A DNA stretch of 64,000 bases from Phycisphaerae bacterium (GTDB taxonomy: Bacteria; Planctomycetota; Phycisphaerae; UBA1845), in assembly GCA_029260235.1 (NCBI GenBank), contig JAJDDP010000211.1, positions 1 to 64,000 of the forward strand, in the 5' to 3' direction. The stretch's first letter is position 1, and each line of letters begins with the position of its first letter. The notes under the pieces are model-generated. The model made no database searches and was not told the DNA's origin. It saw only the letters and a program-made list of their open reading frames with translations. The position numbers and the translations under genes were made by a program. Shown in pieces: positions 4,944 to 26,158 of the stretch.

Positions 4944-5069
4944 GACTCGATACCCAACTCAGCAGAACCGCCACGCCTTCGCAGCCTCACACCTCGCCAA
5001 CCGCCAAGGCATGTCGCCCGAGGGGCCGCCCTAAGTCACGAAACATCGAAGTTGATGACCACGCCAAAA

Positions 5070-5498: not shown

Positions 5499-5609
5499 TG
5501 GCAACCAGCTCCTCCACGCCCAGGCCAACTACGACTCGCCCTACCCGGTGAGGGCAACGCCCGGACGTGGAATGTCCAGATTCGACGCGACATGATCAGC
5601 CAGCATCTG

Positions 5610-7989: not shown

Positions 7990-8165
7990 GACTGTGTGTC
8001 TCCATTGACGATTACGGTCGTGCGTGCTTGGGGTCGCTTTGCCAACACTCCCTAGCGGTTGATCTCTAAATTGAGGCGGTTTCCATCCTTGCTCTCGTTG
8101 AATCCGCACCGGCGGGCCGGCCAAAACACTGTTGATGCCCTGCCACGATTTTCCTCACCCCTGCC

Positions 8166-8762
8166 CTATGCTGGCGGCGTCTCGGGATCGGATGGTGGCG
8201 GATCGCCCGACGGACCGTCTGTCGGTGGTGGATCAGCGGCCGGGGGTTCAGGAACTGGCGGAGCCGCAGCTGGTGCTTCTGCCGGTGCCTCGGCACTGGC
8301 GATCATCGCTAGGATCTGGGACCGCACAGCTGGATCCTTCACCGCGCCCAGTAATTTCTTCTGGGCAGCTTTGTCACCCATCACCGGCCTCAGTGCCTTC
8401 ATGGCATCGCGGAGCTCGAGCAAATTACGCAACTCGGGCACTTGCCGGGCGACGGACTCAGGCCTGAAGTCCTTAAGGGTGCCCAGGTTCATTTTGATGG
8501 CCATCTCGCCACCGCCCTTGCTGACCTTGTCCGGCACGCTCATGTCCAGCGACAAGTTGAAACTCTGCATCACCGAGTCGAAGTTGCTCTTGTTGATGTC
8601 TAGAGGAGCACGCTCTTCGATAGTCCGCTTGTCGTCTTTGAGCGTGTAATCACCCATTACCAAGACGCGGAAGGGCAACTCCGGCTCTGCGCCTCCGCGA
8701 AGGCGATCAGAGATTGCGATGTTCACCCGTGATTCACGGGCTTTTGATGCTGCTTTGGCCAT
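8166..8762 (-). CDS. tssB: TssB small sheath subunit with Pro/Ala-rich tail
   Basis: TssB (ImpB/VipA family), the small sheath subunit that pairs with TssC. 198 residues, start at 8762 after AAGGAG. Conserved features are the early VNIAISDRL and LPFRVLVMGDYT stretches and DFRPESVARQVPEL near residue 100. Usual TssB proteins are about 160-175 residues. Here the last 40 or so residues are almost only Pro, Ala, Glu, Asp, Ser and Gly, an added flexible tail that would project from the sheath surface. Confidence 0.94.
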   Translation of the reverse strand: MAKAASKARESRVNIAISDRLRGGAEPELPFRVLVMGDYTLKDDKRTIEERAPLDINKSNFDSVMQSFNLSLDMSVPDKVSKGGGEMAIKMNLGTLKDFRPESVARQVPELRNLLELRDAMKALRPVMGDKAAQKKLLGAVKDPAVRSQILAMIASAEAPAEAPAAAPPVPEPPAADPPPTDGPSGDPPPSDPETPPA

Positions 8763-8800
8763 GGGTCGGCTCCTTTTTGTTTAAGGCTTGGTTCTGGTGA

Positions 8801-10369
8801 TTACTTGCCCGAAGGTTCAGCTGCAAGAGCAGCCACCGGGTCAAGCTGGCACAGCCAAGCATACGAGTCACGAACTTTTTCGAGCGTTCCGGGGGTCGGC
8901 GCTTTCTCCGAGGATGCGAGTGATTTTCGACAACGGTAAAGCGTCTCAGCGACATTGACCGCCAACGTCGGCTCCCATTCATCAATACCGAACTTTTGAA
9001 TCTCTTGGTAGCAATCTTCGAGCAATGGTCCGGCAAGTTTCAGCCTTTGTGCTTCAAAACAAAGCTGGGCGATGTGTAGACGCCACAGCAGACGATCTCG
9101 CCGTTGGGTGCAGGTGGTCAAGCCTTCCTGCAGTGACGCGACCGCCTCCTTGAGTTTCCCAGAGGCGACCAATTTCCGCGCCTTGCCGGACGCCTTGGTC
9201 AGCTTGCCATTGGCAGCCGATCCGCCTCCTTGTCCGCCCCCACCTGGTTTTGCTGCAACTTCAGATTCGATCCATATGCGCGTCTCACCACCGCACAATG
9301 CTTGGCCACCTTTGAATCGCAGATCAAACAATTCTTCACCAAGCCGTCGAACCAGTCCGGCGGTGGCTGTGATGACTGCCTCCAACGCTTTCTCGTGGGT
9401 CGATCCCAGCCCCCGCAAGGCAGCACAGACGTAACGCTGCACATCAAGCCAAAGGGGATCAGACGTACGGAATCCTGCCTCGGCGTTCTTCAGCAGGTTC
9501 TCCCACATTTGCTTTGAATACTGGTGCTCAAGGGTTTCGATCACACTTTTTTCCGGCGGGGTGATTTCATACTTTCCGTCATCGGAAGTTGGCAAGCTAA
9601 TTTTGGACCACTTTATGGCCCGGACCCATGCGTAGGGGAGCGGGTCGGTAGGATCAGCCTTGCGCAAGAATGCGGCTGCGCTCATCACCGCAGTGACGGC
9701 ACTGCCCGAATCTGCAACTTCAGCAGCCACAAATCCGCCAGCCACTGGTGCAGCAGGGGCGCCGGGTGCTCCAGACGGTGCCGCTGGAGGAGCCGCGGGG
9801 GCGGCCGCAGCTGGTCGTTTGGCACACTGTTCTTTGAGGCTGCGAATGAACTTCTTGAAGTCAGGCCCATCGTCGGGCATCTTGCCAGTTAGGGCAGCCT
9901 CTAACTCGGCGATCCGTACGGCACATTGATCGAGTGCGTCGAAGTCGTCGCCCTTGGGTTGGTTTTCCCAAAACCATCCTCGTTCGGAAAAATAGTCCGT
10001 CACTACTTCGATTCTGCTTTTCCGCCGGCGTGGTCGGGCTGGGAAGAGTCCGTCCCAGAAGTTGTTTATCAACTCAGTCGTCATAGCCATCCAGGCTGAC
10101 AAGCCTGCATAGCCATACACCTTGAAAAGGGCTAGCCCGAGGGCCGACGCTACCTCTACATCTTTGGATTTGGTCCTGAGGAGTTCAGTGGCACTTCGCT
10201 GCATGCTGTGCCAGTCAGGCTCGTCCGATTCTATCCGGTCCAGTTTGCCTACTTCTCCAACGACGAAAATGTAGGCCTCGTCATCCCCGACATCCGTACC
10301 GCAAGGGTCGGCGCCTGGAATAGGCTGTCTGCCCAGATCAAGAAATGGATTTTCGTCGAGACTTGCCAT
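8801..10369 (-). CDS. tssA: TssA T6SS cap/assembly protein
   Basis: TssA (ImpA family), which primes and caps tube and sheath assembly. 522 residues. The N-terminal ImpA_N domain is recognisable by PGADPCGTDVG followed by SKDVEVASALGLALFKVYGYAGLSAW in two blocks, with NNFWDGLFP near residue 105. Residues about 190-215 are an Ala/Pro-rich linker, and the C-terminal half is predicted helical with EALEAVITATAGLVRRL-type helices. It is encoded 38 bp upstream of tssB and 248 bp downstream of tagF. Confidence 0.9.
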   Translation of the reverse strand: MASLDENPFLDLGRQPIPGADPCGTDVGDDEAYIFVVGEVGKLDRIESDEPDWHSMQRSATELLRTKSKDVEVASALGLALFKVYGYAGLSAWMAMTTELINNFWDGLFPARPRRRKSRIEVVTDYFSERGWFWENQPKGDDFDALDQCAVRIAELEAALTGKMPDDGPDFKKFIRSLKEQCAKRPAAAAPAAPPAAPSGAPGAPAAPVAGGFVAAEVADSGSAVTAVMSAAAFLRKADPTDPLPYAWVRAIKWSKISLPTSDDGKYEITPPEKSVIETLEHQYSKQMWENLLKNAEAGFRTSDPLWLDVQRYVCAALRGLGSTHEKALEAVITATAGLVRRLGEELFDLRFKGGQALCGGETRIWIESEVAAKPGGGGQGGGSAANGKLTKASGKARKLVASGKLKEAVASLQEGLTTCTQRRDRLLWRLHIAQLCFEAQRLKLAGPLLEDCYQEIQKFGIDEWEPTLAVNVAETLYRCRKSLASSEKAPTPGTLEKVRDSYAWLCQLDPVAALAAEPSGK

Positions 10370-10617: not shown

Positions 10618-11613
10618 TCAAGTGAGCGTACGTGGTTGCTCAGCGAAATCCAACCATGAGGCTGTGGACAGTTCTAGGGCAGGGTGCAAATTCGTCAACC
10701 CACCAACGGGCTTAGCAGCGACCAAGTCATCGAGGCAGGCAAGCGTCGGAGCCAATGGGGTTGCGAGCAGAAAATCTTCTCCTTCCAAGCCCTTGGCCAT
10801 CACAATGAGCGATGCTGCCCCGTTGGCCACGTCGGCCCCCACAACCAACGACAAGGGCCGCCGAGACCAATCTAATCGATTCTCCAACCAGAGAAGCCAG
10901 CCGGATATCTGTAGGGAAGCATCGACGCCGACTGATAGCGGCACGCGGAGTGTGGCATCGACCCGCTTGCCATCCAGCTCTGCCAAGTTGTTGCCCCAAG
11001 CGGCGGCCCGTTTCAGCCAGGTTTGCCGATCAGGGGCCATCGAGTCCGATCCCAAGCCATCCAACCAATCCGCCAATGCCACAGACTTGGCTTCTTCAGT
11101 CCACGCAAGTCCCTCGTCTCCCTCAGCCCGGGAATTCACCGCTCGTGTGCGTCCACCAAGTAAGGCATCGAGTCGCTGTGCGGTCTTGAGATGGGTCTTC
11201 ACATCGCTGTGAAGTGCATGCAGATCCTCAATCACCCGCAAGTACAGCCCGGCATCGTTGCTGCTGGGGCCAGGAAAGTCAGATGTGGGACCGCCTGCAA
11301 ATACACAGAACGGAAAGGACCGCCCCCGCATATCACCGCCATAGTCACGGATGGAAGCAAACACGGTCATCTCTGTCTTGGGGAGTCTAAGTAGCAAGCC
11401 ACAAGATGGCAAAACCGGGTTATCCGAACCCTCCCCACCGAGTCGGCCCTTGTAGATCTGATACCCTTTGAGAATCCAGTCGATGAACTCGACGGTCCAG
11501 TCTTGCTCGGAGGGGGATCGGTAATAATCGGCGTAATCAGGGAGCTTTCCGAACCAGTGAATCCTGAGATCAGGTGAAGGCGTGTTTGATCGGAACAGAT
11601 CTCTCCAGCCCAT
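10618..11613 (-). CDS. tagF: TagF (ImpM family) T6SS-associated regulator
   Basis: TagF/ImpM proteins act as post-translational repressors of T6SS assembly in several species. 331 residues. The family N-terminus HWFGKLPDYADYYR (about residues 19-32) and the LRLPKTEMTVFASIRDYGG-type segment with the RGRSFPFCVF strand are clear. In other systems TagF works together with a kinase/phosphatase/Fha pathway. No Fha or PppA is visible here, although a degenerate kinase fusion lies divergent at 20981. Encoded between tssM and tssA. Confidence 0.85.
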   Translation of the reverse strand: MGWRDLFRSNTPSPDLRIHWFGKLPDYADYYRSPSEQDWTVEFIDWILKGYQIYKGRLGGEGSDNPVLPSCGLLLRLPKTEMTVFASIRDYGGDMRGRSFPFCVFAGGPTSDFPGPSSNDAGLYLRVIEDLHALHSDVKTHLKTAQRLDALLGGRTRAVNSRAEGDEGLAWTEEAKSVALADWLDGLGSDSMAPDRQTWLKRAAAWGNNLAELDGKRVDATLRVPLSVGVDASLQISGWLLWLENRLDWSRRPLSLVVGADVANGAASLIVMAKGLEGEDFLLATPLAPTLACLDDLVAAKPVGGLTNLHPALELSTASWLDFAEQPRTLT

Positions 11614-11703: not shown

Positions 11704-14700
11704 TCATGGCCGTTCCAGCGGGTAGATCGGATCCGGCATGGGTCGCTCCAACTTGAAGAGGAATTTCTCTCCCACGATGTGTTTGTCCGGATCCAAAGTA
11801 CTAATCAAGGGAGCCTGGCCCGCCGCCCTAAACCTAGCCGGTAGGTCAAAGCTGTGCGATGTGACCCATTTGTCGCCATACCTGATTCCGTGACGATGCA
11901 AATATGCACACAAAGCCAGGGGCGACGTTTCGCCAAAAGTCCGAGTCAAATTCGGATAGCTCCGGCCTGATCCCTCACGTTTTCGTCCTTCAATGAGGGA
12001 GACCGATAGCTCCGTCTTGCCCGCGCGGGTAGACCAGTCCCACACCGCATTCTGTGGCCGATTGATCTTCTTTTCGGTCAATGTCGCAATACGCAATGGG
12101 CGCCCCACGTCGCTGCCAGGCTCGTCGTCCTTGACTACTGCCAAAGCGAGGTCCAGGGACACGGCGTCGTAGTACTGCTGGGCTGTGTCGTGGACGCGTT
12201 CCTTGCCGAACGGCTCGGTCACCGGGTCAGCCCCCTCGACACTCACCACCAATGCTTCCGCCGTTACACGATTGCCCAGACCCATGAAACCAACCCAATT
12301 ACGCGCACCTTCATAGAAATTATTTCGCGCCATCCAGAATGGCTCGTCATGCGGCAGCGACTCTTCGATCGGCTGGAATACCAGCTGGGCACGCCCCACC
12401 TCGCGGACGAATTCTTTGAATTCCACAAAATCGACGGTCTGCAGCGATTTTGGACCTACGGCCGACTCGTTGAGGTAAGGCCAGCCATCATACGCATCCG
12501 CGTTGGCAAAATACCTGCTCTGCATGACGAACAAAGTTTCCGACAATGCCCGACTCAAGAGTTCCTGGGCTTTGGATTCAAAAGCGACAAGCTGCCCGGT
12601 CAACTTATATTCCTTGTCGATGCGGGCCTCTTCTCGCAAAGCCTGAATCGTATTCCACGGGATGGCCGCCGTGTCTTCCTTGCGAGCGTCATTGCCAAAC
12701 TTGTTGGGCAACTTCACGTTCGAGGCGATGGCCTTGGAGAGAGCAGTCCATCGCTCGACAAACCCATCAGCCAGTGCGCTCCAGGGCGCATCCGCATCGT
12801 TCGCGCCCTCTAGGCTATCTTTTGGGTATTGCGCTTCAACAGCGAAGCTAGCCAAGGCTTGCCCGCCGTCTTTCTCGATGGCATCTTGCATCCAAGAGGC
12901 AACTTCCAGCCAATCCATATCTGTAGGATCGACATTGCTGGTCCAGCGGCCCGACACGTTGTCCAAATACCAGCTCCAGAATGGGACAGCCTCAAGCAAT
13001 TCGGTGAGTGCAACTTGGAGTTCGTTCGCGACTGCATCTCCACCTGTCCCGCGAACACCACTGCCCCGCTGCATCATCCTAGCCAGCGTGTCCCAGTCGT
13101 CCGCTCGATCAATCAGCCGACCCAATTCGCTTAGATCCGCGCTTTCGTAGGCATCCGCCCAAGACCGGACGTATTCGCGCGTATACACCCGTCCCGCCCG
13201 TCCAAGCTCCTGCATGCACACCTCGTTGAGCGGCTGGGTATCGTCCGTGCTGCGGAAGTAGTAACTCGAATCAAAATCGCCCAGGCTATAGAGCAGATTG
13301 CTGGACTCTTCCATCAGCTCGTTCAGAAATGGCCTAGTTGCACACGCCGGCACTTGGCCTATGGAGTCGCTCTTGACTACCGTCGTTTTCCGCGTCTCGC
13401 GCCGGCGCTCGCCCTGTCCCCGTCTTCCTCGGCGAGTCCGCTTGCTGCGATTCTTCTTGGATCGGTCCGGCTTGCTGGCTTGACGCTCAGAATCTTGATC
13501 GTCATCGCCACGCGGAACATCGATTCGGTAAACGGAAGGCATCCGGCTGTTCCAGTCGGGTACCAGCTCTGCCAATCCCCAGCGTCCCGTCTGATCAAGT
13601 CCAGCCAACATGGTGTTGAGCAGCCGCCGCCCTTGCCCCAGGATAATCAAGTCCAGATGGGCTTCGTGCAGCTCACTCAACTCGTCCGGCCGCCAAACAG
13701 GAGGCAGGGAGGCTACATCGATCTGAGAATCGGAGTCTTCAGCCCCCAATAACTCCTCCAACTCATCGACCCAATCAGCTGGCGTCCCTACGTCGTCAGC
13801 AACGTCCAATTTCGCCGCGACCAATCCATCGTGAATGTTCTTGAGGATCCCTCCGACCTCGCTTAAGTCGGGCGAAGTCTGCAAAGCATCCGACGCTGTT
13901 CCACCCCCAGAGGTCAGGGCGAAGATGTGTGGATAGCGCGCCGGCACTTCCTTGACCACTTGGGCAAATGCGTCGTAGTAGGCTTCCTTATACTCACGGT
14001 CGGTCAGCTCGACCTGGCGCAGGCTGGCCCATAGCGTACGGTCCAAGCCGGGCAAGCCCGACGCATCGCTGCCACCAGCCAAGGCAGCCAAGGCTTTGCC
14101 CACAGCTTCGTCGGGCGATGCTTCACAATGGCTATACGCAGCCAGCAAGGATGCCTGATAGTCTGTCCATAATTTGCGTTGGGCTAGAATGGCTGTGCCC
14201 AACGGATCAATTCTGGTGTGTACGCCCTCTGACGAGCCTTGCCAACGGCATGCTTGAACCGAGTCGGCGAACGTCTGGTAGTCCTTGACGAACGTCTCCC
14301 TGAATGTTTGCAAGTCCTCGAGAGTTTCAGGGTCTTCACGGGCAGCATCCAGCATGCTCGTGTAACTGGTTTCAAGCGCATCGCAACGGGTGCGAATTCG
14401 CAACCACTCGCGAACCAGCGGATCTGGATGGGTGTCATTCAGTTCGGCGTAACCAGCCAAGTAGCTGTGCGTTTTCAATAGGGCTGCGCGGATGGTGCCG
14501 GCTGGATCAAACGAACTGCCGAGCAACAACCCTGCCGGGTTCTTCCTGTCCTCCACGCGGGCTAGGACCGTAAAGTATGCCGCCGCCTGACTGAAGAACT
14601 GCTCCTTCTTGGTTACCATGATCGCTTCTTTGTCGGTGACCACCCGACAGAGTATTTCGAATTGCCCGAGGTCCATGCCCTTGGGAACCTTGCCTTCTCG

Positions 14701-16467
14701 GGCACAGCCAAACCAGCCAACATATTGCTCCAGAGAGGCCATGTACTCGTTGGCGGCGCGTCGAGCCTCCTCGCCAGCCCGGGGATCCTGCAGCATCGTA
14801 GTCTTGAGGGCCTGCTCGACGTAGCTGAGGGCTTCGCTCAACAGCTCCCGCTCAAACATGCCTGCCCGAATCGCGTTCAGGTCGATGATCGGCTTGGATG
14901 ATCCAATTCCCAACGAGAGAATCCGTGCCCAAGCCCGATTGGTCTCCAAAATGTTTACGTCATCCCCCAAGGCGCTAGCGGCCAGGAGGGCATCGGCAGA
15001 GGTGCGTTCGATGTCAGGGCGAGCACCACTGGCGTCGGTACGTGGTTGACCGATCATCGAGCCGAACTTGTAGGAACTTAGTCCTAGCAACGTAACTAGA
15101 AGGACAAAGAGAGCTGCACTGCTCCACTTGAGGACCTTGGCCATCTTCCGCTTTCGCATGGCCTGTTCTTCGTTGCGGAAGACCAGTCCATGCTCTGGGA
15201 ACACCTTCCTGAACAACAGGTCTTTGATAAAGTGAGGCCTCTTGTTGGGATACAGGTCCAGCGGTGCGAATTGGCTTCCCACGTCTGACCCCAGACGCTC
15301 GCTCAGATGTTTAAGAATCAGGGCGCCTTCCTGTGTCGCACTGGTGAAGTAGATGCCCCGGAAGAGCAGGTTCTTGATGGCCCGCGGATTGCGGATCATC
15401 GGGAATAGCGTGCGGATGTACGTCTGCAATGGAGCCTTCAACTCGCGGAATTCCTCCGGATAGCTATAGGCCAATCCAAGATCAATTTCATCGGCTTCGT
15501 CATTGAGCCTGCGAAGTCGCAGCTCGTTCAGGCGGCTATACAGATCCCCAAACTCCCCACCAAACATCTCTGGATCGTAGAGCTCGTTGTAGTTGCCTTC
15601 TTTGGACCAACCGAAAATCTGATTCTTGAAGGTGATGTCCCGCTCTGCCCGATCAAAGAACTGCATGAACCCTAGAATCTTGTCGCACTTGGTCACCAGC
15701 AGGTAAGTCGCGAAGGTCACGCCCAGCTTGGCCTGCAAGTCGCGCAGCCTCTCCAACATGGTGTTGGCATCCTGCTCGACCTTTTCAGGCGAATCCTCCA
15801 GCAAATGGTCAGCCGACACGCAAACCAAGGCGCCGTTGACGGGGTATCCTTTTCGGCCTCTGCCGACCGTGTTTAGGAAGGCTTCCCACTCTTTGCGATC
15901 CGCATCATCCTGCGGGTTGCACAGACGCCCAGCCATATCGACGAATACGGCGTCTTCGGTGAACCACCAGTTGTAGTTGAGTGTGCCAAGCTGATAGCCT
16001 TCAGGCTTGCCTGTTGAAAACGTGAGGCCGCCCTCGTTGATCAGTTTTGTCTTGCCGCACCCCGAATCCCCCAACACGATGTACCAGGGCAGATCGTAGA
16101 CGCTCAGCCCCAGGTTCTTGTTCATGTCCTTGATGGCTGTGAAGAACTTCTCGTTGTTGGCCTTGATCGACGCGCGTACATCCATCCCCGTCGGTCCGCC
16201 GGCACCTTCGTCCGCCAAGTCGGCGGCCATTTTCCGTTGCCGTTTCTTAGCCCCCCTGCCAAAGATCTTGGCGATGACGAACCCGACCAGACAAATCACC
16301 CCAACGGTTCCAGCCACCACCAGAATGACCATGAACATGGACCAGCCCGGGAACAAGAACCGCTTAAGGACGTACATCGCCCCCAACGGCGTACCCAAGC
16401 CAGCCATGGCAATCAACATGCGGACTTCACGAGGCAAGCTCTTGAATAAGGCGAGTAGTTTCTTCAT
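11704..16467 (-). CDS. tssM: TssM (IcmF family) inner-membrane T6SS protein
   Basis: TssM spans the inner membrane and, with TssL and TssJ, forms the T6SS trans-envelope complex. 1587 residues, longer than the usual 1100-1300. Two N-terminal membrane segments lie at about 15-37 and 43-69. A cytoplasmic NTPase-like domain has Walker A GDSGCGKT at 133-140, and a third membrane segment is near 445-465. The rest is a large periplasmic domain. Around residues 990-1030 there is a remarkable Arg/Lys/Ser-rich stretch (RSKKNRSKRTRRGRRGQ). Start ATG at 16467 follows AGGA. A 70-bp gap separates it from tssL. Confidence 0.93.
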   Translation of the reverse strand: MKKLLALFKSLPREVRMLIAMAGLGTPLGAMYVLKRFLFPGWSMFMVILVVAGTVGVICLVGFVIAKIFGRGAKKRQRKMAADLADEGAGGPTGMDVRASIKANNEKFFTAIKDMNKNLGLSVYDLPWYIVLGDSGCGKTKLINEGGLTFSTGKPEGYQLGTLNYNWWFTEDAVFVDMAGRLCNPQDDADRKEWEAFLNTVGRGRKGYPVNGALVCVSADHLLEDSPEKVEQDANTMLERLRDLQAKLGVTFATYLLVTKCDKILGFMQFFDRAERDITFKNQIFGWSKEGNYNELYDPEMFGGEFGDLYSRLNELRLRRLNDEADEIDLGLAYSYPEEFRELKAPLQTYIRTLFPMIRNPRAIKNLLFRGIYFTSATQEGALILKHLSERLGSDVGSQFAPLDLYPNKRPHFIKDLLFRKVFPEHGLVFRNEEQAMRKRKMAKVLKWSSAALFVLLVTLLGLSSYKFGSMIGQPRTDASGARPDIERTSADALLAASALGDDVNILETNRAWARILSLGIGSSKPIIDLNAIRAGMFERELLSEALSYVEQALKTTMLQDPRAGEEARRAANEYMASLEQYVGWFGCAREGKVPKGMDLGQFEILCRVVTDKEAIMVTKKEQFFSQAAAYFTVLARVEDRKNPAGLLLGSSFDPAGTIRAALLKTHSYLAGYAELNDTHPDPLVREWLRIRTRCDALETSYTSMLDAAREDPETLEDLQTFRETFVKDYQTFADSVQACRWQGSSEGVHTRIDPLGTAILAQRKLWTDYQASLLAAYSHCEASPDEAVGKALAALAGGSDASGLPGLDRTLWASLRQVELTDREYKEAYYDAFAQVVKEVPARYPHIFALTSGGGTASDALQTSPDLSEVGGILKNIHDGLVAAKLDVADDVGTPADWVDELEELLGAEDSDSQIDVASLPPVWRPDELSELHEAHLDLIILGQGRRLLNTMLAGLDQTGRWGLAELVPDWNSRMPSVYRIDVPRGDDDQDSERQASKPDRSKKNRSKRTRRGRRGQGERRRETRKTTVVKSDSIGQVPACATRPFLNELMEESSNLLYSLGDFDSSYYFRSTDDTQPLNEVCMQELGRAGRVYTREYVRSWADAYESADLSELGRLIDRADDWDTLARMMQRGSGVRGTGGDAVANELQVALTELLEAVPFWSWYLDNVSGRWTSNVDPTDMDWLEVASWMQDAIEKDGGQALASFAVEAQYPKDSLEGANDADAPWSALADGFVERWTALSKAIASNVKLPNKFGNDARKEDTAAIPWNTIQALREEARIDKEYKLTGQLVAFESKAQELLSRALSETLFVMQSRYFANADAYDGWPYLNESAVGPKSLQTVDFVEFKEFVREVGRAQLVFQPIEESLPHDEPFWMARNNFYEGARNWVGFMGLGNRVTAEALVVSVEGADPVTEPFGKERVHDTAQQYYDAVSLDLALAVVKDDEPGSDVGRPLRIATLTEKKINRPQNAVWDWSTRAGKTELSVSLIEGRKREGSGRSYPNLTRTFGETSPLALCAYLHRHGIRYGDKWVTSHSFDLPARFRAAGQAPLISTLDPDKHIVGEKFLFKLERPMPDPIYPLERP

Positions 16468-16537: not shown

Positions 16538-17320
16538 CTAACCAGAATTGGTGTCATCCTCGAGAACCATTGGCGCGTCCTGCCATTCCTCGGCGACGTC
16601 GCCGATTTCACCGACGGCCTGGCTCCAAGCCATCCTAAAGGTGAAAATCGAGAGAACGATAATGATCGCCAGCGTAGCCAGCACAACACTCAGGCTCAGC
16701 CCGAGGCTGTAATTGACCTTGAGTTCCTGATTGTGCCGATAAGCCTCGGGAAACATTTCCTTGGCCCGAGTGGAGGCATAGGCAGGCAGCCTGCTAAACA
16801 GCCGGCGGGTGTAGTCCGCCAGTTCTTGCGGACGATCATGGTACTGCCCCTGAAAGCCGAGCCGAAGGCAGGTGAAGTAGAGGCTTAGTTGTTCGGCCAA
16901 TTCGTCTTTGTCACGCCGATCGCGGCGCTCAGCCAATTCGTACTCCCGCTGCAGATCATCGCAATCGCGGAAGAACTCTTCACCCCCAAGTGCCTGGGCA
17001 TGATCCAAGATTGTAGGGTCGGTCTCGAATGGGTTGTCGATCCAGTAGTTACGCCCTTCCCAATCCGTGTTGATCATCCGGTAGTCGAGCAGATAGACCA
17101 TGACAGCTTTGATGCGGTCATTCCAGGCCCGCTCACTGACTGGCTCTTGCCTGGAGAGGTCTTCCGCATCTCGCAGGGCTGCTAACGCTTCGTAGCGAAC
17201 CTGATCAGGAGCCTCTACCGAACCGTGCTTGATCCGCCGCACAAAGTTGGTCAGAAACTCAAAGACGGGCCAGCACGCTGAGGTCAGATGTAAGGAAGCT
17301 TGTTCGTCCATATCACTCAT
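16538..17320 (-). CDS. tssL: TssL (DotU family) inner-membrane T6SS protein
   Basis: TssL/DotU, 260 residues, the tail-anchored partner of TssM. The ATG at 17320 overlaps the tssK stop as ATGA, so translation is probably coupled; the longer upstream frame is rejected for that reason. The conserved DotU stretch CLRLGFQGQY is near residue 160. A single C-terminal membrane segment (LSVVLATLAIIIVLSIFTF) is near residue 225. No peptidoglycan-binding OmpA domain follows, so cell-wall anchoring must come from another protein if it occurs. Confidence 0.93.
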   Translation of the reverse strand: MSDMDEQASLHLTSACWPVFEFLTNFVRRIKHGSVEAPDQVRYEALAALRDAEDLSRQEPVSERAWNDRIKAVMVYLLDYRMINTDWEGRNYWIDNPFETDPTILDHAQALGGEEFFRDCDDLQREYELAERRDRRDKDELAEQLSLYFTCLRLGFQGQYHDRPQELADYTRRLFSRLPAYASTRAKEMFPEAYRHNQELKVNYSLGLSLSVVLATLAIIIVLSIFTFRMAWSQAVGEIGDVAEEWQDAPMVLEDDTNSG

Positions 17321-18735
17321 GACCGATTCTTCAGCACAACGTAGAGCGACGGCTGGAAGGCCTCGAAGGCAGCCAACTGCCCTTCTTGGATACTTACACG
17401 CAGGCCTCGCTCCTGCTCGCACTCGCGCCAGTAATCGGTTCGATCCGTTCCAATGGTCTTGTTGATCTTGAAGTAATGCAGCCCCTGGCGCCGCGGCAAC
17501 GTGCCGGCTGGCACCGCCTTGATTTCCAGCCTCAACCCCCGGACTGCAATGTTGGCGATTCTAGTTGCCCTGGAAGGCGAAGCCAATTTCAGATTCAATC
17601 GCCCGTATACGTCTTTCTCCAACTCCTGAATGTCCATCTCATCAGACCGCATTGCCACAAACAGCTCAAGATTCTCGTCGATCCACTGACGATCCAACTC
17701 GACCTCAAGCCCTTCGCGGTTTTGGCGATCGCGCTTCCTGGTGAACGGTCGCTCAACGTAGGCCATGGGCCTCATCGCTTCGAGCAAACCCTCTATTCGA
17801 GTCCGCAGCCTATAGAGAACCAAGCCCGGCTGGTCGTGGTCATAGGTCGGCATGGTGCCAGGCACCAAATCGTCATGAAAAACCGACAGATGGCCCACCA
17901 AACGCGACATAGCCACAAACACATCATAGGGATGCAGCAGCGGGCTTTGCAACATTGCCTTTAATTGTGCCCGCGATTCGTTGAGGCAATGCAGTTTCAG
18001 GAGATGTTCGGTGTTGGCTGCTACCCCATCAGTGAAGAGCATGCGATGCTCTTTGGCTTCGCGTGCCAACACTTCATCCTTGGCCTCGATCTGATCGGAT
18101 AACGATCCGATCATGGCATTCAACCCGGCGTCTGCCTGGAGGCTCAGCAGCGGGCCTGCCCACATGGGGTCAAGCTCCGGCACAGCCCCTGGACGGTCGG
18201 TGCGCTTGATTGCACCAATGCGGACGACTTCGTAACCAATCATGTCGTCGCCCGCGGCAAATAACCGGGCCCGCATCCGCCGGACATAAATGGTCTGTGG
18301 GTTCTGACCCGTATTCTCATCCCGCGTGACTAACGCCTTAGGCTCGTACCTTGGCGAACCGTCGGTCAGTTCCGGGCTATCAAGCGAAATCGAATTGGCC
18401 CGCACTTCCTGCATCTGCGGAATCCCCAAGAATACATCCAAGGGCTTGTTGACCTCTTCGAGCTTCCCGTCAAAGTTGAGGGGGGCAACTTCAGTGTTTT
18501 CAGGGATGTTGAGCCAAGTACCATCTTTGAGACGAACGCAGCAGGCGTCGAGGCGCAGGGTTGAGTTTTCCAACGGCTCTGGAGCAATCTGCAAAGCGGC
18601 AAAACCCCATGCGTAGGGGCGAACAGAATCGAGGCCTGTTCTTATGTTGTTCTCTAGCCAACGCTGGCCTGATTGCAGGTGGTGCGGGCGGAGGAACATG
18701 CCCTCAGACCAGTGAATTTCCGTCCAAAAGCTCAT
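17317..18735 (-). CDS. tssK: TssK T6SS baseplate-membrane connector
   Basis: TssK (ImpJ/VasE family) is the trimeric adaptor between baseplate and membrane complex. 472 residues. The hallmark N-terminus IHWSEGMFLRPHHLQ is present at about residues 7-21. The ATG at 18735 has an AAAGG site 8 bp upstream; an in-frame TTG just before it is less likely. Later segments VAMSRLVGHLS and YVERPFTRK also fit the family. Its stop overlaps the tssL start. Confidence 0.95.
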   Translation of the reverse strand: MSFWTEIHWSEGMFLRPHHLQSGQRWLENNIRTGLDSVRPYAWGFAALQIAPEPLENSTLRLDACCVRLKDGTWLNIPENTEVAPLNFDGKLEEVNKPLDVFLGIPQMQEVRANSISLDSPELTDGSPRYEPKALVTRDENTGQNPQTIYVRRMRARLFAAGDDMIGYEVVRIGAIKRTDRPGAVPELDPMWAGPLLSLQADAGLNAMIGSLSDQIEAKDEVLAREAKEHRMLFTDGVAANTEHLLKLHCLNESRAQLKAMLQSPLLHPYDVFVAMSRLVGHLSVFHDDLVPGTMPTYDHDQPGLVLYRLRTRIEGLLEAMRPMAYVERPFTRKRDRQNREGLEVELDRQWIDENLELFVAMRSDEMDIQELEKDVYGRLNLKLASPSRATRIANIAVRGLRLEIKAVPAGTLPRRQGLHYFKINKTIGTDRTDYWRECEQERGLRVSIQEGQLAAFEAFQPSLYVVLKNRS

Positions 18736-18837
18736 CAAATCGACCTTTCGAGTACCAGGATCAACCCAGCTTGGGGCACAAACAAGAGACGCGATTACCT
18801 TAGGAGAACTTCAGTCAGCCCAAGTGATCGCCCTGGT

Positions 18838-19530
18838 TCAATCCTCTTCCTTGCCGTGCAATTTCCTGGGAGTCTCGTTGTCAATGTACTGTCCATAGAA
18901 TTCCCGACTGGAGTCTACGCCGATTCTAACAAACAGATCGCGCGTATACGCCCCAGGCGGATGCAACTCGGCCGGCGGCACAGCCATGACCCTTCCATCA
19001 GGCCCGATGAACTTGCCGAACACATAAATCACCGACTGGTCGTTATGCAAACCACCGCTAAACTCAAACTCGCGTTCGAGCGTCTTCTCCTTGTCCGTGG
19101 CTGCCCCACGGAGAGGCGTCCCTGCCTTGGTACCGTAGAATTGCTTGTCATAGGTCATCACGAAGATCTGCGACTTGGGCAGGTAGAACCTCCCTGCTCG
19201 ATCATCCATGTCGGCTTTGTCGCCGGAGATAGGACGATCCTGAAACCAGACATCGGACGTAATCCCTTCGCCGGGGGCCAATCGATCATTACAGTCGAGC
19301 TTCAGGTCGGCGGCTGTCACGCACACGATGTTGATCTCCAAAGGATCACCCGTGCGGCTGGCCGCAGGTCGGTTCATGTGCACAGCCGTGTTGATGTAGT
19401 CATCCTGCGTGATGGTCAACAATCGAGCACATCCTGCAAGGCTCCCAGAAGCAGCCAGTGCAGCTAGGCAAACCAACTTGGCCCGGAAGAGCCCTCGCCC
19501 AAACGTCCACGCGTTCTTGACAGTTCTCAT
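18838..19530 (-). CDS. tssJ: TssJ-like outer-membrane lipoprotein
   Basis: Predicted lipoprotein of 230 residues. The start at 19530 gives a basic n-region, a hydrophobic core and the lipobox LAGC at about residues 31-34. The mature part is a short beta-rich domain with DPLEINIVCVTAADLKLD and LPPAELHPPG-like segments consistent with TssJ, the lipoprotein that anchors TssM at the outer membrane. Sequence similarity to TssJ is weak by eye, so position between the coiled-coil gene and tssK is part of the argument. Another secreted T6SS accessory lipoprotein remains possible. Confidence 0.72.
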   Translation of the reverse strand: MRTVKNAWTFGRGLFRAKLVCLAALAASGSLAGCARLLTITQDDYINTAVHMNRPAASRTGDPLEINIVCVTAADLKLDCNDRLAPGEGITSDVWFQDRPISGDKADMDDRAGRFYLPKSQIFVMTYDKQFYGTKAGTPLRGAATDKEKTLEREFEFSGGLHNDQSVIYVFGKFIGPDGRVMAVPPAELHPPGAYTRDLFVRIGVDSSREFYGQYIDNETPRKLHGKEED

Positions 19531-19561: not shown

Positions 19562-20746
19562 TTAGCCTGCCCGCCCGAAAGACTCCGCCAGATTCTTGCT
19601 GCGGAGTTGGTGAATATGTTCCAAGAAGTGGTAGTGGCCATCATCGCGGAGGTAATCCTTGACCTTTCGGTTCGGATCTCCCTCGAGGCCCATCTCCCCA
19701 CGCAAATGCGTTTCCAATTCTGAGGCAATGGACTCGATAGCGCTATCGCAACCAATCATGGATGCCTGTGCCCAGGAAAGCAGCATCCGCAGTCGCATCT
19801 TCAGCAAACCAGCAGGCCTACCGTCTTTGACGGCGATTGTCTGCCTCACCGTCTTGTGGACGTCGTCCCTCTTGGCATAAACCTCCCAAGGCACTTTAAC
19901 CGTTGTGTTGTGTTTCGTGTACTTGCCCAAGAAGACCCGCATGCTGTTGTCGAATTCATCCGCAAAGTGGGCCAACTCGATGAAGGCGTCCACCAGGCGT
20001 TCAGCCGCCTGCACATTTGGCAGGACGTGACCCTCGACCAGTGAAGGCTTGGTTGATGCAAGCCGCAGCCAAAGTTGCCCCAACAGGGACTCGGCACTCT
20101 GGGAGACCGCTTGCTTTGCCTTGTTGAGTTCTGCATTCAACTGCTCGACTTGGGCTTCTTTGTCCGTCCGCAGCTTCTCGAATGCCTGTCTGCTCTGCTC
20201 AAGCTCAGCCGCAAGCTCTCGCCGACTGGCTTCTATCCGATCCGCTTTGCTGTCATCCGCGCCGGAGGCTTCTAGACGCTGTACTTGGAGCATCAGACGC
20301 TCCTGCTCTACCTCGGCTGCGTGCAGGGCGGTGTTCTTGGCTACGAGTTCAGCCATTTGGGCGTCGTGATCATGCTGCAGCGACTCTAGTCGGGCACGTT
20401 GTTCTTCGATGGCACGCTGTTGATCGTCCGCCCGAACCTGTTCAGCCTCAAACTGCGAGGTGCGATGGGCCAAGTCGGCTTGAGTCGTAGCCAGCTTGTC
20501 TTCCAGATTGGCCCGTTCTCGATCAACCTTCTCCAACCTCTTGCTGACCTCTTGCGACCGGTCGTTCGCCCCGGCGTCCGTGGCTTGAGCGCCGCCGCCA
20601 GCCAACTCGCCGAACAGGGAAGCCAGCAACTGATAGCGCTGCGGTTCATCCATCTCAGCCAACGCTGCTTGGAGTGACCCGACGACCGCATCATCGGCCC
20701 CGCCGCCCCTTGAGCCGTTTCTTGCTGGCTTGCTGTCACCCGTCAT
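19562..20746 (-). CDS. Coiled-coil protein at head of T6SS operon, function unknown
   Basis: I do not recognise a named T6SS family. 394 residues from the ATG at 20746; an upstream TTG at 20848 would add 34 residues without clear support. Residues about 75-225 form a long, heptad-rich coiled coil full of E, Q, A, L and R. The C-terminal 170 residues are a compact, probably globular helical domain (LGQLWLRLASTKPSL, then LAHFADEFDNSMRVFLGKYTKH). No signal peptide is visible, so it is probably cytoplasmic. It lies 31 bp upstream of tssJ and seems to be the first gene of the operon, which suggests a T6SS assembly or regulatory role. That role is inferred from position only. Confidence 0.75.
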   Translation of the reverse strand: MTGDSKPARNGSRGGGADDAVVGSLQAALAEMDEPQRYQLLASLFGELAGGGAQATDAGANDRSQEVSKRLEKVDRERANLEDKLATTQADLAHRTSQFEAEQVRADDQQRAIEEQRARLESLQHDHDAQMAELVAKNTALHAAEVEQERLMLQVQRLEASGADDSKADRIEASRRELAAELEQSRQAFEKLRTDKEAQVEQLNAELNKAKQAVSQSAESLLGQLWLRLASTKPSLVEGHVLPNVQAAERLVDAFIELAHFADEFDNSMRVFLGKYTKHNTTVKVPWEVYAKRDDVHKTVRQTIAVKDGRPAGLLKMRLRMLLSWAQASMIGCDSAIESIASELETHLRGEMGLEGDPNRKVKDYLRDDGHYHFLEHIHQLRSKNLAESFGRAG

Positions 20747-20980: not shown

Positions 20981-23900
20981 ATGGCTGCCATCTACCGACG
21001 GGGCATCATCAGGACTGTTCAGACCGACGAGAGCGCATGGGCTGAGCTGACCGAGAAGCTTCAGGCTGCTGTCGAGCGGCAGAACGAGCTAGCCAACGCC
21101 TGTCCGCATGTGCTTCGGTTCAAGGGGTCTCTCCAAGCAGCGGCGGACAACCAAAGCCTGGTCATCGAGCACGAACCCGCGACGACCATTCCGATTGGTC
21201 CGTTGTTCAGTGACTCAAGCGCGCCTGTGCCCGCGGCCCACCTCCTTCGAGTCACAGCGGCGCTTTATGAGGCGTTAGCCGCTGCGCACGGGGGGAGTGG
21301 TGGAGCCCCTCTCGCCCACGGCTGCATCTGCCCCGGAGTGGTGCTATATACGCCGGATGGCCAAGTCAAAGTCTCTGATTTTGGCTTCGCCCAAGCCATC
21401 TGCAGTGTTCTAGGGCCACAAGAGTACCTTAACCTGGCCGTAGGGCCGACCTCCCAAGACGTGCCAAGTGGAACCACGTTTTGCATGTGGGAAGTCCAAG
21501 CCCCCGATGAGTTTTCACGTGACGACCGCATTTGCGGCTTCGTCGATCCTGAGAAATACGGCACGCACACGCTGACCGCCTTCGAACATGGCTCGGATAT
21601 CATCGGGGCGGGCTTCGTGCTGCATTTGATGGCTGAGCACCAACACGCTTACCTTTACGCCGACCCCGATGCCCATCGCCTCGTAGAAATGTCCGAGTTC
21701 ATGGCCATGGGGCGCTACAACGGGGCTCGCCGCAAGGACCTCCGCGCTGCCGACGATCCGGGCACAAAGCGCTGGTGCGATCTCATGGCGGGGATCTTAG
21801 CCCGCTTACCTCAAAACCGTCCGTCGGCTGGCGAGGTTGCCGAAGCTCTTAGCGAATATGTAGTCCCACAACAAGCCGACGACGTCCTGAGACAACAACT
21901 TGGGGAGATCGAGGGCTACGCTCAGCAGGAGGAGTGGGACAAAGTTCTCCAAGAATGCCGCCTGGTGGTTCAAGACCAAGCTGCGCCTGCGGACGTGACT
22001 CAGAGAGCCAACGCCTTGGCCATGCAAGCCGAGGCCAACCTGCTCCTCGCCCAAGCCACTGAGTCACTTCAGCACGGCAACCTCGACCAAGCAGGCCCAC
22101 CGCTCGAAGATATCTCGAAGATGGTCGGGCTTCCTGCCGAGCTGGTTGACCGAGCGAGGCAACTCAGCGACGTGGTCCGGGCCAATATCGTCACTAGGAA
22201 CGCGGTGGAGGAAATCAGGGCGGAACTCGAACAGGCTGACCGCGTCGATCCTGTGCAATTGCACGACCAGACTGAAACGCTCCTCCAGCGACTTGGTCAT
22301 TTTGCAGCCGAAGATGCCCTCGTGGAGCGTGTGGCACAATCCATTGCTTCGGTGAAGAAGGAAGTTGAGGCTGTCCGCGACGAGGTGCTCCCTCATGCGA
22401 AAGCGGCCAAGCAGCAGAATCTCGACAGCGCCCAGGCGTGGGTAGACAAGATCACGTCAGCCGCAGAAGCAGCCAGTTGGGATGAGGTTGGCTCTTTGCT
22501 GGAGGATCGCCCCTCGCTGACGCATTGGCCCGAGGGCATCCTAGAAAAAGCAAACGCGTTCGAGCAACAACTCGATGCGTTTCGGGCAGACCAAGCGCGA
22601 CAAGGTGCCATTCAGGAGGATGCACAGTCAGCCCACGCATGGATCGATTCACTCTCCAAAGCCGTGGCTGAGGAAGATTGGGATTTGGCGGAACAGGCCT
22701 TGGCTGACAAGCCCCGGCTCGCTAATTGGCCCGATGACATCCTGGATCAAGCCAATCAGCTGGCATCCAGCCTTCGCAATGCCCGCAAAGATCAAGCCAA
22801 TCTCGCACATGCCGAGGAATGGGCTGGGAGATTCATCAAAGCGGCTCAAGCAGAGGATTGGGATGCCGCCACCGATCTGCTCGCTCAAAAACCGGTGCTG
22901 CAGAGCTGGCCCGAAGAGCTGGCCGATACGCTGGCACCGCTGCAGGCAGAAGTTGAACAGCGAGTCGAAGCCGACGAATTGGAGCGCCGCCGCGTCGAAC
23001 AACAGCAGCGCCAGGCGTACCAATGGCTCGATCAAGCCAATGAAGCCTCCAACAGCGAGCAGTGGGAAGAGGCGCTGACGCTCACTCAAACTCCTCCAGC
23101 ACTTGAGAGTATTCCCAAACAGGTCATGGAGAGGTCAGCCAAGCTAGCCGTCTACTGCCGTGACAAGCTGGGCGAGGCCGTTCTAGAAGAGCTAAGAGCC
23201 AGGCGCGAGAAGATCCTCGAATTGGCCCGCAGGCACATCGACGGGTTGATCGGTCAAGAATTCGAGGGGCTAATTGCGCCTGGGGCGTTCAAGGTCGGGA
23301 TGGATGCCGATGAGTTCGTATCCGACATTCCCGGCGCCGATGGACGGGCTGTCCTGCATGTCGCTGCTGGCGAGACCTCCGGTGCCAAGCTACGGTTTTC
23401 CGCCCCGTTTGATTTCAAAGTCAATGCCGAGCCAGCTAGCATTTGTGACGATGAGGGCACGCTGGATGCACTGTTAGTCGACTCGGTTGGGCGACTGCTC
23501 CTCGACACGCAAAAGCAGGGCATAGTAGGGTTGGCACAGCGCCTTCGCGACGGACTATTCCCCATGGCAGAGGCGGACTTGAATCTCGGCAAGGCCACTG
23601 CTGAGGCCGACGCGAAGATCCAACTCATGGGCCCAGATAGTAGCGCGGGCAGTCTCAAGGTGCCGCTGCGTTGGGCTCCGGATCACCTGCGTTGGGAATA
23701 CCGCGATGCGGCCGAGTTTTGCGACCGGGCTACGAGAATTTGTACGCGAGAAGTCGCCGCTCAAATCATGGCTGACTTACCCGCGCGGAGTGACCTTCTG
23801 GGCCAATACTTGTCACTTCTTGAGGTCAAGCTGGAATCTGCTCCCGATGACTCCAGGACGACTCTTGCTGCCCCGCTGCCTTTGGATGCAAGTTTGGGAG

Positions 23901-26158
23901 TTCGCGGTGGAGGGCCGCTCGAGCCGCAAACCCTGCTCAGCTTCAAAGTCTCCTGCCCCCAACTCGGCATTGTTGATCATGAGGCTGACCTTTCTACTGC
24001 CGAGGCGACTTTATTGCAGTTGATTGTCCAAGCCCAGATAAGCGACCGATCAGCCATCGAGGCAGACCTGTCGGGCCAAGTGAAAGGTGCGGCTGCCAAG
24101 GCAAAGATCACCTCCTCGCCCAACCGCATCCAAACTCCTGTTGGCGAACTGACCTTTGAACTCAAACCGAAGGGCCGGCCCCCCTTGCAACTTGCCGCTT
24201 CGTGGGATGTCAAGAAGTTCGCCTTCATCCTGCCTGAAGAATGGCAGCAGCTGGTCGATCAATGCTTGGCTGGGACTGCCCCGCTGGCCCCCATCGCAGA
24301 CAGCATCGAAACCTCATCACCGGATCAAACGAAGAAGGCCCCATTGTGGCGTCAACGGCGTGCACAAGCGGCCGCAGGGTTGATCGCAGCCGCGGGGCTT
24401 GCTGCCGGCGGCTGGGCGGTTTGGTCGGGTCCAGCCAAGACGGTGCCCCATAACCCCACCAAACAACCCGCAGGAACCGAGCCGACCGAGGATGAAGTAG
24501 TCAAGAAGCCAACAGCGCAACCAATCGATGACCAATCCCAGCCGCCTGATACGACCGAAATTGAGCAGCCGCAGGTGCCCACAAACGATGCTGATACAAC
24601 CCGAGACGAAGTGATTACGACACCCACTGATCCGCCAGCCGAAGACCCGGAAGACCAAGCCCTCAAAGAGCTGACCGCCCAATTGGCCATCGCGACTAAG
24701 GACTACGAATCCATCGAACAAGAGCTGAAGGCGCCTACACATAGCCAGCTAGTTGCGCGGATCGATCAGGGTGGCGTCGATGAGCTGGTCGAGACTACCT
24801 ATACGTTGTCGGACCAGCTGCCTGCCGATGCAACTGACTTGGCTGATCAGGTTGATACCCAGCTTGAACAGCTCGAAGATTGGCAGGCTAAGTTGAGAGA
24901 ATACGGCAAGGTGCTGGATTTGGGAGGAAAGACCATTGATGAGCAGATCCAAGTTCTAGAAAAGGCAAAGTCTGCCTGGACCACCGACTGGGTCACGCGG
25001 CTGCTGGAACAACTGCCTTCCATCGGGGCATCGCTGGCTGCCGCCGAGGAACAAGCAGGCCAGGGCAACTGGCGGTCTGCCCTCTCTGCATTGAGAAAAG
25101 TCAAAGAGGGTGCCGCAGAGGCTGGTTTGGCAACAACGATCGACGACACCATAGCCGCCGCCCACCAACGTGTTGCCGACGCCCGACTTGATTTCTTGAC
25201 TCCCGTGCTCGCCGAAGCCAAGCAATGGCTGGCCAACAACCCCATGCCTGAAAATCAACTCTTCCACCTCTCGCAGACCGATCAAGCAACAGAAGCGCGC
25301 TACAAGCTCGACTATCTGGATTTCGATTTCCCCACCAACCCCGAGTCTGGAGACTGGATCGACGCTGCCCGCCAGGAAGAAATTTTTCCGTGGACGATTC
25401 TATCCGACATCCAAGCCAAGACTGTGGCTGGGCTACTTGATTGGGTGAACGTCTCACTGCCTATTCCAGCAATCAATGGTTCAGAAGGCTCGGCCATCGA
25501 TCTGGTCTTCATCCCACCTTGGCCTGCTGCTGGGCTGACCGACTCGGTCTGGATGAGCCAAACCGAAATCACCGTTGCTCAGTTTCAAACTATCACCGGC
25601 AGTCTGCCCGATGCGCGAGGGGAGGCCTTCATGGAGATGCGGAAGAAGGGCACCAATCCGATTGCCTTCGTGCCGGCTGACAAAGTTGGAAAGTTCTGTG
25701 GCCAATTGCAATCGAGATTCGACGAGGGCACGCTTACCGTCAAGATTCCCGACGCCGAACGATGGAAGATCGCTTACCATGCAGGGGCCTATGCCGACGT
25801 GCAGGCATTCACGCGGCAGTGTGCCTATGATCAGGGCGGAACCGCCAGACTTGATCCAACCCGTGCCAATCTCGAATCGGACGAACTGTTCTCACCGAAC
25901 GAGCTCTTTTCACCAGGGCACGAGGATGGCTACGAATTCTACGCCCCAGTCAGGTTGAATCCTTCCAATAGATGGTTGCTCCACGGGATGCTGGATAACG
26001 TCAGGGAGTGGGTAAGAGCAGTGTCTCGGATCCAGGCGGTCGGAGGATCATTCCGCGATGCAGCACTGGACGACTACACCGAACCTATCGGAATGGACAA
26101 CTCCAAAGCGTACGATCATGTGGGCCTGCGCATCGTTATCGTTCCGACCCGACAGTAA
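20981..26158 (+). CDS. Pseudokinase - helical repeat - TM - FGE-like fusion protein
   Basis: 1725 residues. Residues 1-290 resemble the C-lobe of a Ser/Thr kinase, with a reduced N-lobe. The catalytic loop reads HGCICPGVVL (113-122), so the HRD aspartate, the following lysine and the asparagine are all replaced, while DFG (133-135) remains. This predicts a pseudokinase. Residues about 485-725 hold four tandem 60-68-residue helical repeats with a 'WD...L..P.L..WP' pattern. An unrecognised beta-rich region follows, then a membrane segment near 1127-1150, a Pro/Thr/Asp-rich linker, a coiled coil, and a C-terminal FGE/sulfatase-modifying-factor-like domain (about 1505-1725: TEITVAQF, GMLDNVREWV, VGGSFRD, VGLRIV). 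Chlamydial Pkn1 pairs a kinase with an FGE domain in a similar way. ATG at 20981 is chosen over TTG at 20969 for AAGGG spacing. Its divergence from the T6SS operon suggests a signalling or scaffold role there. Confidence 0.8.
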   Translation: MAAIYRRGIIRTVQTDESAWAELTEKLQAAVERQNELANACPHVLRFKGSLQAAADNQSLVIEHEPATTIPIGPLFSDSSAPVPAAHLLRVTAALYEALAAAHGGSGGAPLAHGCICPGVVLYTPDGQVKVSDFGFAQAICSVLGPQEYLNLAVGPTSQDVPSGTTFCMWEVQAPDEFSRDDRICGFVDPEKYGTHTLTAFEHGSDIIGAGFVLHLMAEHQHAYLYADPDAHRLVEMSEFMAMGRYNGARRKDLRAADDPGTKRWCDLMAGILARLPQNRPSAGEVAEALSEYVVPQQADDVLRQQLGEIEGYAQQEEWDKVLQECRLVVQDQAAPADVTQRANALAMQAEANLLLAQATESLQHGNLDQAGPPLEDISKMVGLPAELVDRARQLSDVVRANIVTRNAVEEIRAELEQADRVDPVQLHDQTETLLQRLGHFAAEDALVERVAQSIASVKKEVEAVRDEVLPHAKAAKQQNLDSAQAWVDKITSAAEAASWDEVGSLLEDRPSLTHWPEGILEKANAFEQQLDAFRADQARQGAIQEDAQSAHAWIDSLSKAVAEEDWDLAEQALADKPRLANWPDDILDQANQLASSLRNARKDQANLAHAEEWAGRFIKAAQAEDWDAATDLLAQKPVLQSWPEELADTLAPLQAEVEQRVEADELERRRVEQQQRQAYQWLDQANEASNSEQWEEALTLTQTPPALESIPKQVMERSAKLAVYCRDKLGEAVLEELRARREKILELARRHIDGLIGQEFEGLIAPGAFKVGMDADEFVSDIPGADGRAVLHVAAGETSGAKLRFSAPFDFKVNAEPASICDDEGTLDALLVDSVGRLLLDTQKQGIVGLAQRLRDGLFPMAEADLNLGKATAEADAKIQLMGPDSSAGSLKVPLRWAPDHLRWEYRDAAEFCDRATRICTREVAAQIMADLPARSDLLGQYLSLLEVKLESAPDDSRTTLAAPLPLDASLGVRGGGPLEPQTLLSFKVSCPQLGIVDHEADLSTAEATLLQLIVQAQISDRSAIEADLSGQVKGAAAKAKITSSPNRIQTPVGELTFELKPKGRPPLQLAASWDVKKFAFILPEEWQQLVDQCLAGTAPLAPIADSIETSSPDQTKKAPLWRQRRAQAAAGLIAAAGLAAGGWAVWSGPAKTVPHNPTKQPAGTEPTEDEVVKKPTAQPIDDQSQPPDTTEIEQPQVPTNDADTTRDEVITTPTDPPAEDPEDQALKELTAQLAIATKDYESIEQELKAPTHSQLVARIDQGGVDELVETTYTLSDQLPADATDLADQVDTQLEQLEDWQAKLREYGKVLDLGGKTIDEQIQVLEKAKSAWTTDWVTRLLEQLPSIGASLAAAEEQAGQGNWRSALSALRKVKEGAAEAGLATTIDDTIAAAHQRVADARLDFLTPVLAEAKQWLANNPMPENQLFHLSQTDQATEARYKLDYLDFDFPTNPESGDWIDAARQEEIFPWTILSDIQAKTVAGLLDWVNVSLPIPAINGSEGSAIDLVFIPPWPAAGLTDSVWMSQTEITVAQFQTITGSLPDARGEAFMEMRKKGTNPIAFVPADKVGKFCGQLQSRFDEGTLTVKIPDAERWKIAYHAGAYADVQAFTRQCAYDQGGTARLDPTRANLESDELFSPNELFSPGHEDGYEFYAPVRLNPSNRWLLHGMLDNVREWVRAVSRIQAVGGSFRDAALDDYTEPIGMDNSKAYDHVGLRIVIVPTRQ
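22435..23160 (+). repeat. Four tandem coding repeats of about 65 codons
   Basis: Within the pseudokinase-FGE gene, four consecutive units begin near 22435, 22636, 22816 and 23020. Each carries an aromatic residue, then EDWD or ASWD, a leucine-rich helix, P-x-L-x-x-W-P and a second helix. The units are clearly related at protein level but diverged in DNA. A weaker fifth unit (EEWDKVLQECR) lies upstream near residue 320. Confidence 0.65.

What the first reader, a model, noticed from the sequence alone, without database searches (positions are those of the whole stretch)
20981..26158. Giant pseudokinase-repeat-TM-FGE fusion divergent from a T6SS
The HRD aspartate and its following lysine and asparagine are replaced by Cys, Cys and Val while DFG is kept, and the N-lobe is nearly missing. 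The FGE-like domain is on the other side of a membrane segment. T6SS signalling in other bacteria uses an active transmembrane kinase (PpkA), so this could be a novel scaffold that takes its place.
Basis: partly seen in the sequence, partly recalled or inferred. Interest (0 to 1): 0.75.

Follow-up and report, generated by a model that had tools for sequence, protein, structure and literature searches.

The report
Dead-kinase receptor in type VI secretion locus
Beside the genes for a bacterial toxin-injecting machine, these little-known planctomycetes keep a membrane protein built like the kinase that normally switches the machine on, but with its catalytic residues lost throughout the family, so the switch probably works by binding rather than by phosphorylation.

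Summary
ORF 20981-26158 (1725 aa) is a kinase fold without glycine loop, catalytic Asp, Lys or Asn (HGCICPGV; DFG kept), then helical repeats, an unnamed conserved domain, one membrane segment, a helical stalk and an FGE-like end. All 29 distinct strong family members lack the catalytic Asp. In its order the family tracks the T6SS (TssK in 25 of 27 genomes with the gene, 12 of 87 without) and usually adjoins it. New here: (1) the locus is collinear with a proteobacterial T6SS in which an intact kinase and the FHA protein TagH hold the places of the pseudokinase and a coiled-coil protein, and the PP2C gene is missing; (2) a second, very divergent family of the same plan (dead kinase, membrane segment, FGE-like end) adjoins TssK/TssL in all 14 loci found to carry it in other orders of the class. 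Best reading: a T6SS receptor-scaffold in PpkA's place, with a TagR-like FGE domain fused on, acting without phosphotransfer. Locus, fold and lost residues are shown; function is inferred. The FGE end is not universal: most close relatives carry another periplasmic domain.

The parts
20981..26158 (+). pseudokinase-repeat-TM-FGE protein, 1725 aa (alternative start TTG 20969)
20981..21871 (+). pseudokinase domain, begins at strand beta3 (no glycine loop)
21317..21340 (+). degenerate catalytic loop HGCICPGV (for HRDLKPxN)
21377..21385 (+). retained DFG motif
21875..23260 (+). helical region with four W-D/E repeats of about 65 aa
23261..24274 (+). conserved alpha/beta domain before the membrane segment; no Pfam or PDB sequence match; related to part of the alternative periplasmic region of orthologues
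24371..24421 (+). single predicted membrane segment, basic on its N-terminal side (N-in, C-out)
24632..25456 (+). predicted helical-bundle stalk, periplasmic by topology
25466..26155 (+). FGE-like (sulfatase-modifying-factor fold) end; no Cys in the GGS...R stretch where FGE has its catalytic pair
19562..20746 (-). coiled-coil protein in the place of TagH/Fha; no FHA domain; next to the pseudokinase gene in nearly all orthologous loci
18838..19530 (-). lipoprotein (SLAGC lipobox) in the place of TssJ; TssJ identity by position only
17317..18738 (-). TssK
16538..17422 (-). TssL (DotU)
11704..16467 (-). TssM (IcmF)
10618..11613 (-). TagF-like protein; no PP2C gene between it and TssA
1..10369 (-). 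TssA, TssB, TssC, Hcp, TssE, TssF, TssG and truncated TssH

Best explanation
The protein is a single-pass inner-membrane receptor-scaffold of the T6SS that stands where proteobacteria have the threonine kinase PpkA. Shown by sequence and model: an N-terminal kinase fold without the parts needed for phosphotransfer, cytosolic helical arms plus a conserved domain, one membrane segment, and a C-terminal FGE-like domain (to my knowledge the superfamily of TagR, which activates PpkA from the periplasm), all in one chain. Also shown: its place in a locus that has no FHA protein and no PP2C phosphatase. Inferred: the periplasmic end senses or docks on an envelope component, and the pseudokinase and arms recruit the coiled-coil neighbour (19562-20746) and TssL/TssK, so that T6SS assembly is started by binding instead of by phosphorylation of Fha.
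For: Catalytic Asp, Lys and Asn are lost in all 29 distinct strong members (D to G 27, C 1, A 1; K to C 27, S 2) while fold and other motifs (RDDRICAFIDPEKYG) are conserved. T6SS linkage: TssK in 25 of 27 genomes with the gene and 12 of 87 without (odds ratio 78; Fisher p 5e-14, ignoring relatedness); TssK within about 8 kb on the same contig in 17 genomes; the gene is either divergent from, or first in, the run coiled coil-lipoprotein-TssK-TssL-TssM. Collinearity with Pseudoalteromonas: kinase divergent from TagH-TssJ-TssK-TssL-TssM-TagF-PP2C-TssA-TssB-TssC; six of six annotated proteobacterial T6SS kinases keep the catalytic Asp, Asn and DFG. No FHA domain on this contig and no T6SS_FHA_C above the cut-off in 114 genomes of the order. 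A second family of the same plan adjoins TssK/TssL in all 14 loci found to carry it; 13 of 14 lack the Asp, and the last lost Lys, Asn and DFG; its N domain matches the T6SS-kinase profile (hhalign prob 96), and the gene between it and TssK weakly matches T6SS_FHA_C in five of nine members (best E 0.0033). PpkA of Acidovorax interacts with T6SS parts and forms foci even when catalytically dead (PMC12607579), so a binding role for this protein type is plausible.
Against: In Acidovorax the kinase activity is needed for T6SS killing (PMC12607579), so losing it is not trivially neutral. The coiled-coil neighbour shows no detectable homology to TagH (hhalign prob under 1). The FGE end is replaced by another domain in most close relatives, so TagR-like sensing cannot be the whole story. 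Exceptions to linkage: G049, G066, G104, and a paralogue on contig C137 of this genome. One of the four T6SS loci of the class outside the order that were picked by TssK alone (L116) has no such gene. No interaction, expression or activity data exist; all main-family records with a name are metagenome bins.
Confidence: 0.6

Rival explanations
1. It is a structural or positioning accessory of the T6SS membrane complex (an anchor between TssJLM and the envelope) with no switch function; the kinase fold is only a spare binding module.
For: Very long helical and stalk regions; periplasmic module exchangeable; always near TssK-TssL-TssM. Acidovorax TssW-PpkA acts in positioning (PMC12607579).
Against: Position collinear with the regulatory kinase gene, and the FGE end recalls the regulator TagR rather than an anchor.
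Confidence: 0.22
2. The pseudokinase fold has another enzymatic activity (as SelO does AMPylation and SidJ glutamylation), using the retained DFG Asp.
For: DFG Asp kept in 29 of 29 strong members; precedent of pseudokinases with other chemistry (e.g. PMC6858067, found).
Against: No glycine loop, no beta1-beta2, beta3 Lys position is Arg or variable, so ATP binding looks poor; the second family changed DFG instead (mostly DPx), so no single set of chemical residues is shared.
Confidence: 0.1
3. Planctomycetes carry many kinase and FGE genes; this is a decayed one that lies next to the T6SS without working with it.
For: 19 FGE matches in this genome; a paralogue away from the T6SS (L057).
Against: Conserved in 27 genomes with adjacency, orderly orientation and conserved residues; a second divergent family in the same place in 14 loci.
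Confidence: 0.04

Closest known systems
PpkA, T6SS threonine kinase (Pseudomonas, Serratia, Acidovorax)
   Same: N-terminal kinase fold, one membrane segment, C-terminal periplasmic part; encoded in the T6SS locus, in the same relative position as the Pseudoalteromonas T6SS kinase
   Different: No catalytic residues or glycine loop; 1725 aa against 306-722 aa in the six kinases read; FHA protein and PP2C phosphatase not in the locus; FGE domain fused on
TagR (periplasmic activator of PpkA in P. aeruginosa) and other non-catalytic FGE-fold proteins (SUMF2, GldK/PorK)
   Same: FGE fold without the catalytic Cys pair, at a secretion system; sequence matches to SUMF2, GldK/PorK and FGE. TagR's FGE relation is from my own knowledge; no held paper was found that states it
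   Different: Part of the same chain as the kinase fold instead of a separate periplasmic protein
Pseudokinases such as MLKL
   Same: Kinase fold without catalytic residues; best Foldseek hit
   Different: Bacterial membrane protein linked to a T6SS; N-lobe cut before strand beta3

Membership tests
Protein kinase fold | bilobal kinase fold | tested here: met
   AlphaFold2 pLDDT 82.5; VIA-align Z up to 19.7 over 225-238 residues
Active Ser/Thr kinase | HRD Asp, catalytic Lys and Asn, glycine loop | tested here: not met
PpkA (T6SS kinase) | kinase fold - TM - periplasmic domain, encoded in the T6SS locus | tested here: met
   (topology predicted)
PpkA (T6SS kinase) | catalytically competent kinase | tested here: not met
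   control kinases intact
Threonine phosphorylation pathway (PpkA-Fha-PppA) | FHA protein TagH and PP2C phosphatase in the locus | tested here: not met
   (FHA domains exist elsewhere in the genome, none on this contig)
FGE superfamily | FGE-sulfatase domain match | tested here: met
   closest orthologue 54.7 bits, E 1.5e-14; the window copy itself 18.2 bits, below the cut-off of 23.3
Formylglycine-generating enzyme | catalytic Cys pair after GGS | tested here: not met
   no Cys in GGSFRDAALDDY...GLR nor in the two best relatives
TagR | binds and activates the T6SS kinase from the periplasm | not testable with these tools
   needs experiment
T6SS_FHA_C (Fha/TagH) for the neighbour 19562-20746 | sequence homology to the TagH C-terminal domain | tested here: not met
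   hhalign prob under 1; order-wide search below cut-off

The most novel reading that the evidence does not exclude
Probability: 0.4. Interest if true: 0.8.

Novelty: new variant of a known kind. Interest (0 to 1): 0.62.

Why it matters
T6SS firing control is known almost only from Proteobacteria, where kinase activity is needed. A genetically fixed replacement of the kinase by a pseudokinase, in two divergent families across a class, would separate what PpkA does by phosphorylation from what it does by binding, a question raised by the focus-forming behaviour of catalytically dead PpkA in Acidovorax. It also gives a natural fusion that links the kinase fold with an FGE-fold periplasmic domain, which supports the idea that such domains serve as adaptors in secretion systems.

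Tried and rejected
Active kinase with unusual motifs: rejected by residue counts in 29 members and the missing glycine loop. FHA-like C-terminus in the coiled-coil neighbour: hhalign found nothing. Fold of the domain at 23261-24274: no Pfam or PDB sequence match; the structural search of the whole model was filled by kinases, so its fold was not really tested. FGE part of the periplasmic model: pLDDT too low to use. The family outside the order: none of 391 phylum genomes at E 1e-20, but only six candidates per genome were scored. T6SS loci of a diverged subtype in the order (L119-L121, L123-L129) have no pseudokinase next to TssK, although seven of those genomes carry a weaker relative (about 75-112 bits) elsewhere. 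Literature: no held paper was found on pseudokinases in T6SS loci or on planctomycete T6SS control.

Full report
Observation. The protein starts at ATG 20981, as orthologues show, and ends at 26158. The model of residues 1-1120 is a kinase fold from residue 1 to 297. The structural alignments begin at strand beta3 in CDK2, PknB and BRAF, so the glycine loop is deleted; the beta3 Lys position falls near Arg6/Arg7, of which Arg7 is invariant in the alignment (inference from the first aligned residues). After it come helices with four W-D/E repeats, a conserved domain of about 340 residues without any named relative, a membrane segment with basic residues before it, a helical stalk and the FGE-like end. 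The FGE assignment rests on the closest orthologue (54.7 bits) and on PDB sequence matches to SUMF2 and FGE; the window copy alone is below Pfam's cut-off.

Family. A profile of the pseudokinase domain finds 36 of 114 genomes of the order, 27 of them strongly, and none in 391 other genomes of the phylum (limited depth). Named records are Phycisphaerae/Planctomycetota metagenome bins. All 29 distinct strong domains lack the HRD Asp and the catalytic Lys and Asn, and all keep the DFG Asp.

T6SS link. TssK occurs in 37 of 114 genomes of the order and in 25 of the 27 with a strong pseudokinase. In 17 genomes both genes lie within about 8 kb; in others the contig ends at the coiled-coil neighbour, or the neighbours are TssL and TssM. 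The gene is either divergent from the T6SS run or its first gene (L099, L101, L102). Exceptions: G049, G066, G104 and the paralogue on contig C137 of this genome.

Place in the locus. In Pseudoalteromonas plasmid NZ_CP077771 a Ser/Thr kinase stands divergent from TagH-TssJ-TssK-TssL-TssM-TagF-PP2C-TssA-TssB-TssC. The window reads pseudokinase / coiled coil-lipoprotein-TssK-TssL-TssM-TagF-TssA-TssB-TssC. So pseudokinase and coiled coil occupy the places of kinase and FHA protein, and the phosphatase is missing. Six of six annotated T6SS kinases from plasmids keep the catalytic Asp, Asn and DFG. No FHA match lies on this contig, and no T6SS_FHA_C passes its cut-off in the order. The coiled-coil protein has no detectable homology to TagH.

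Second family. Of four T6SS loci of the same class outside the order, picked by TssK, three (L115, L117, L118) have just 5' of TssK a protein of 1344-1513 aa with a degenerate kinase domain, one membrane segment, helices and an FGE-like end; L116 does not. A search with the L118 protein found 11 more loci by similarity alone, and all 11 adjoin TssK and/or TssL/TssM. Catalytic loops read HGELKPTNV, HGNLKDLGN, HGALSPENV, HGRLRASNV and similar; 13 of 14 lack the Asp and DFG is mostly DPx; one keeps the Asp but lost Lys, Asn and DFG. The N domain matches the T6SS-kinase profile (prob 96). The gene between it and TssK weakly matches T6SS_FHA_C in five of nine members, without an FHA domain. The two families lost catalysis by different residues, which speaks for a binding role and against a hidden shared chemistry.

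Periplasmic modules. In the main family the part after the membrane segment is FGE-like in the window, G007 and G030, a shorter, strongly altered form in others (L051, L054, L098-L102, L106; only a weak link to the FGE set), and a different region of about 800 aa in most close relatives; that region contains a copy of the first part of the cytosolic domain at 23261-24274 (hhalign prob 93).

Mechanism. Shown: anatomy, lost residues, locus. Inferred: binding-based control. PpkA of Acidovorax interacts with Fha and T6SS parts and forms foci even when catalytically dead, but its activity is needed for killing (PMC12607579), and TagQ-TagR act upstream of PpkA in Pseudomonas (PMC6657622). A chain that carries both the kinase fold and the FGE fold could pass a periplasmic signal straight to the assembly site. 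This is a proposal, at about 0.6.

Limits. Fisher's p ignores relatedness. Topology, fold and the TssJ identity are predictions. Nothing was tested in cells.

Noticed in passing
window 43094-63239: Cluster of multiheme c-type cytochromes with NHL-repeat proteins, a 4Fe-4S protein and an NrfD-like membrane subunit, suggesting an electron-transfer complex.
   Followed up: no
G000 contig C137, L057:8974-11064 (-): Paralogue of the pseudokinase (697 aa, with a membrane segment, HGGLCPASIL loop) away from the T6SS, next to a relative of the window's SBBP-repeat protein (35797-40380); a kinase with an intact HRD motif lies on the same contig.
   Followed up: partly
window 28449-30080 (+): TPR protein whose relatives lie close to the pseudokinase gene in many orthologous loci (L092-L095, L097, L099, L101, L102, L106, L109): a conserved neighbour of unknown role.
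   Followed up: no
L043:16738-19110 and relatives: The alternative periplasmic region contains a copy of part of the cytosolic domain found before the membrane segment (hhalign prob 93, E 3e-7): related domains apparently on both sides of the membrane.
   Followed up: partly
L118:8301-9266 and relatives (alignment A7): Protein of about 310-340 aa between the second-family pseudokinase and TssK, with weak T6SS_FHA_C matches and no FHA domain: a possible FHA-less Fha.
   Followed up: partly
L193:15128-19804: A second copy of the second-family pseudokinase-FGE protein follows TssM, so this locus has two.
   Followed up: no
L153, L156, L158 (G038, G057, G079): Weaker relatives of the pseudokinase, with C-terminal ends like those of the T6SS-linked proteins, lie away from T6SS genes in genomes that carry a diverged T6SS elsewhere.
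   Followed up: partly
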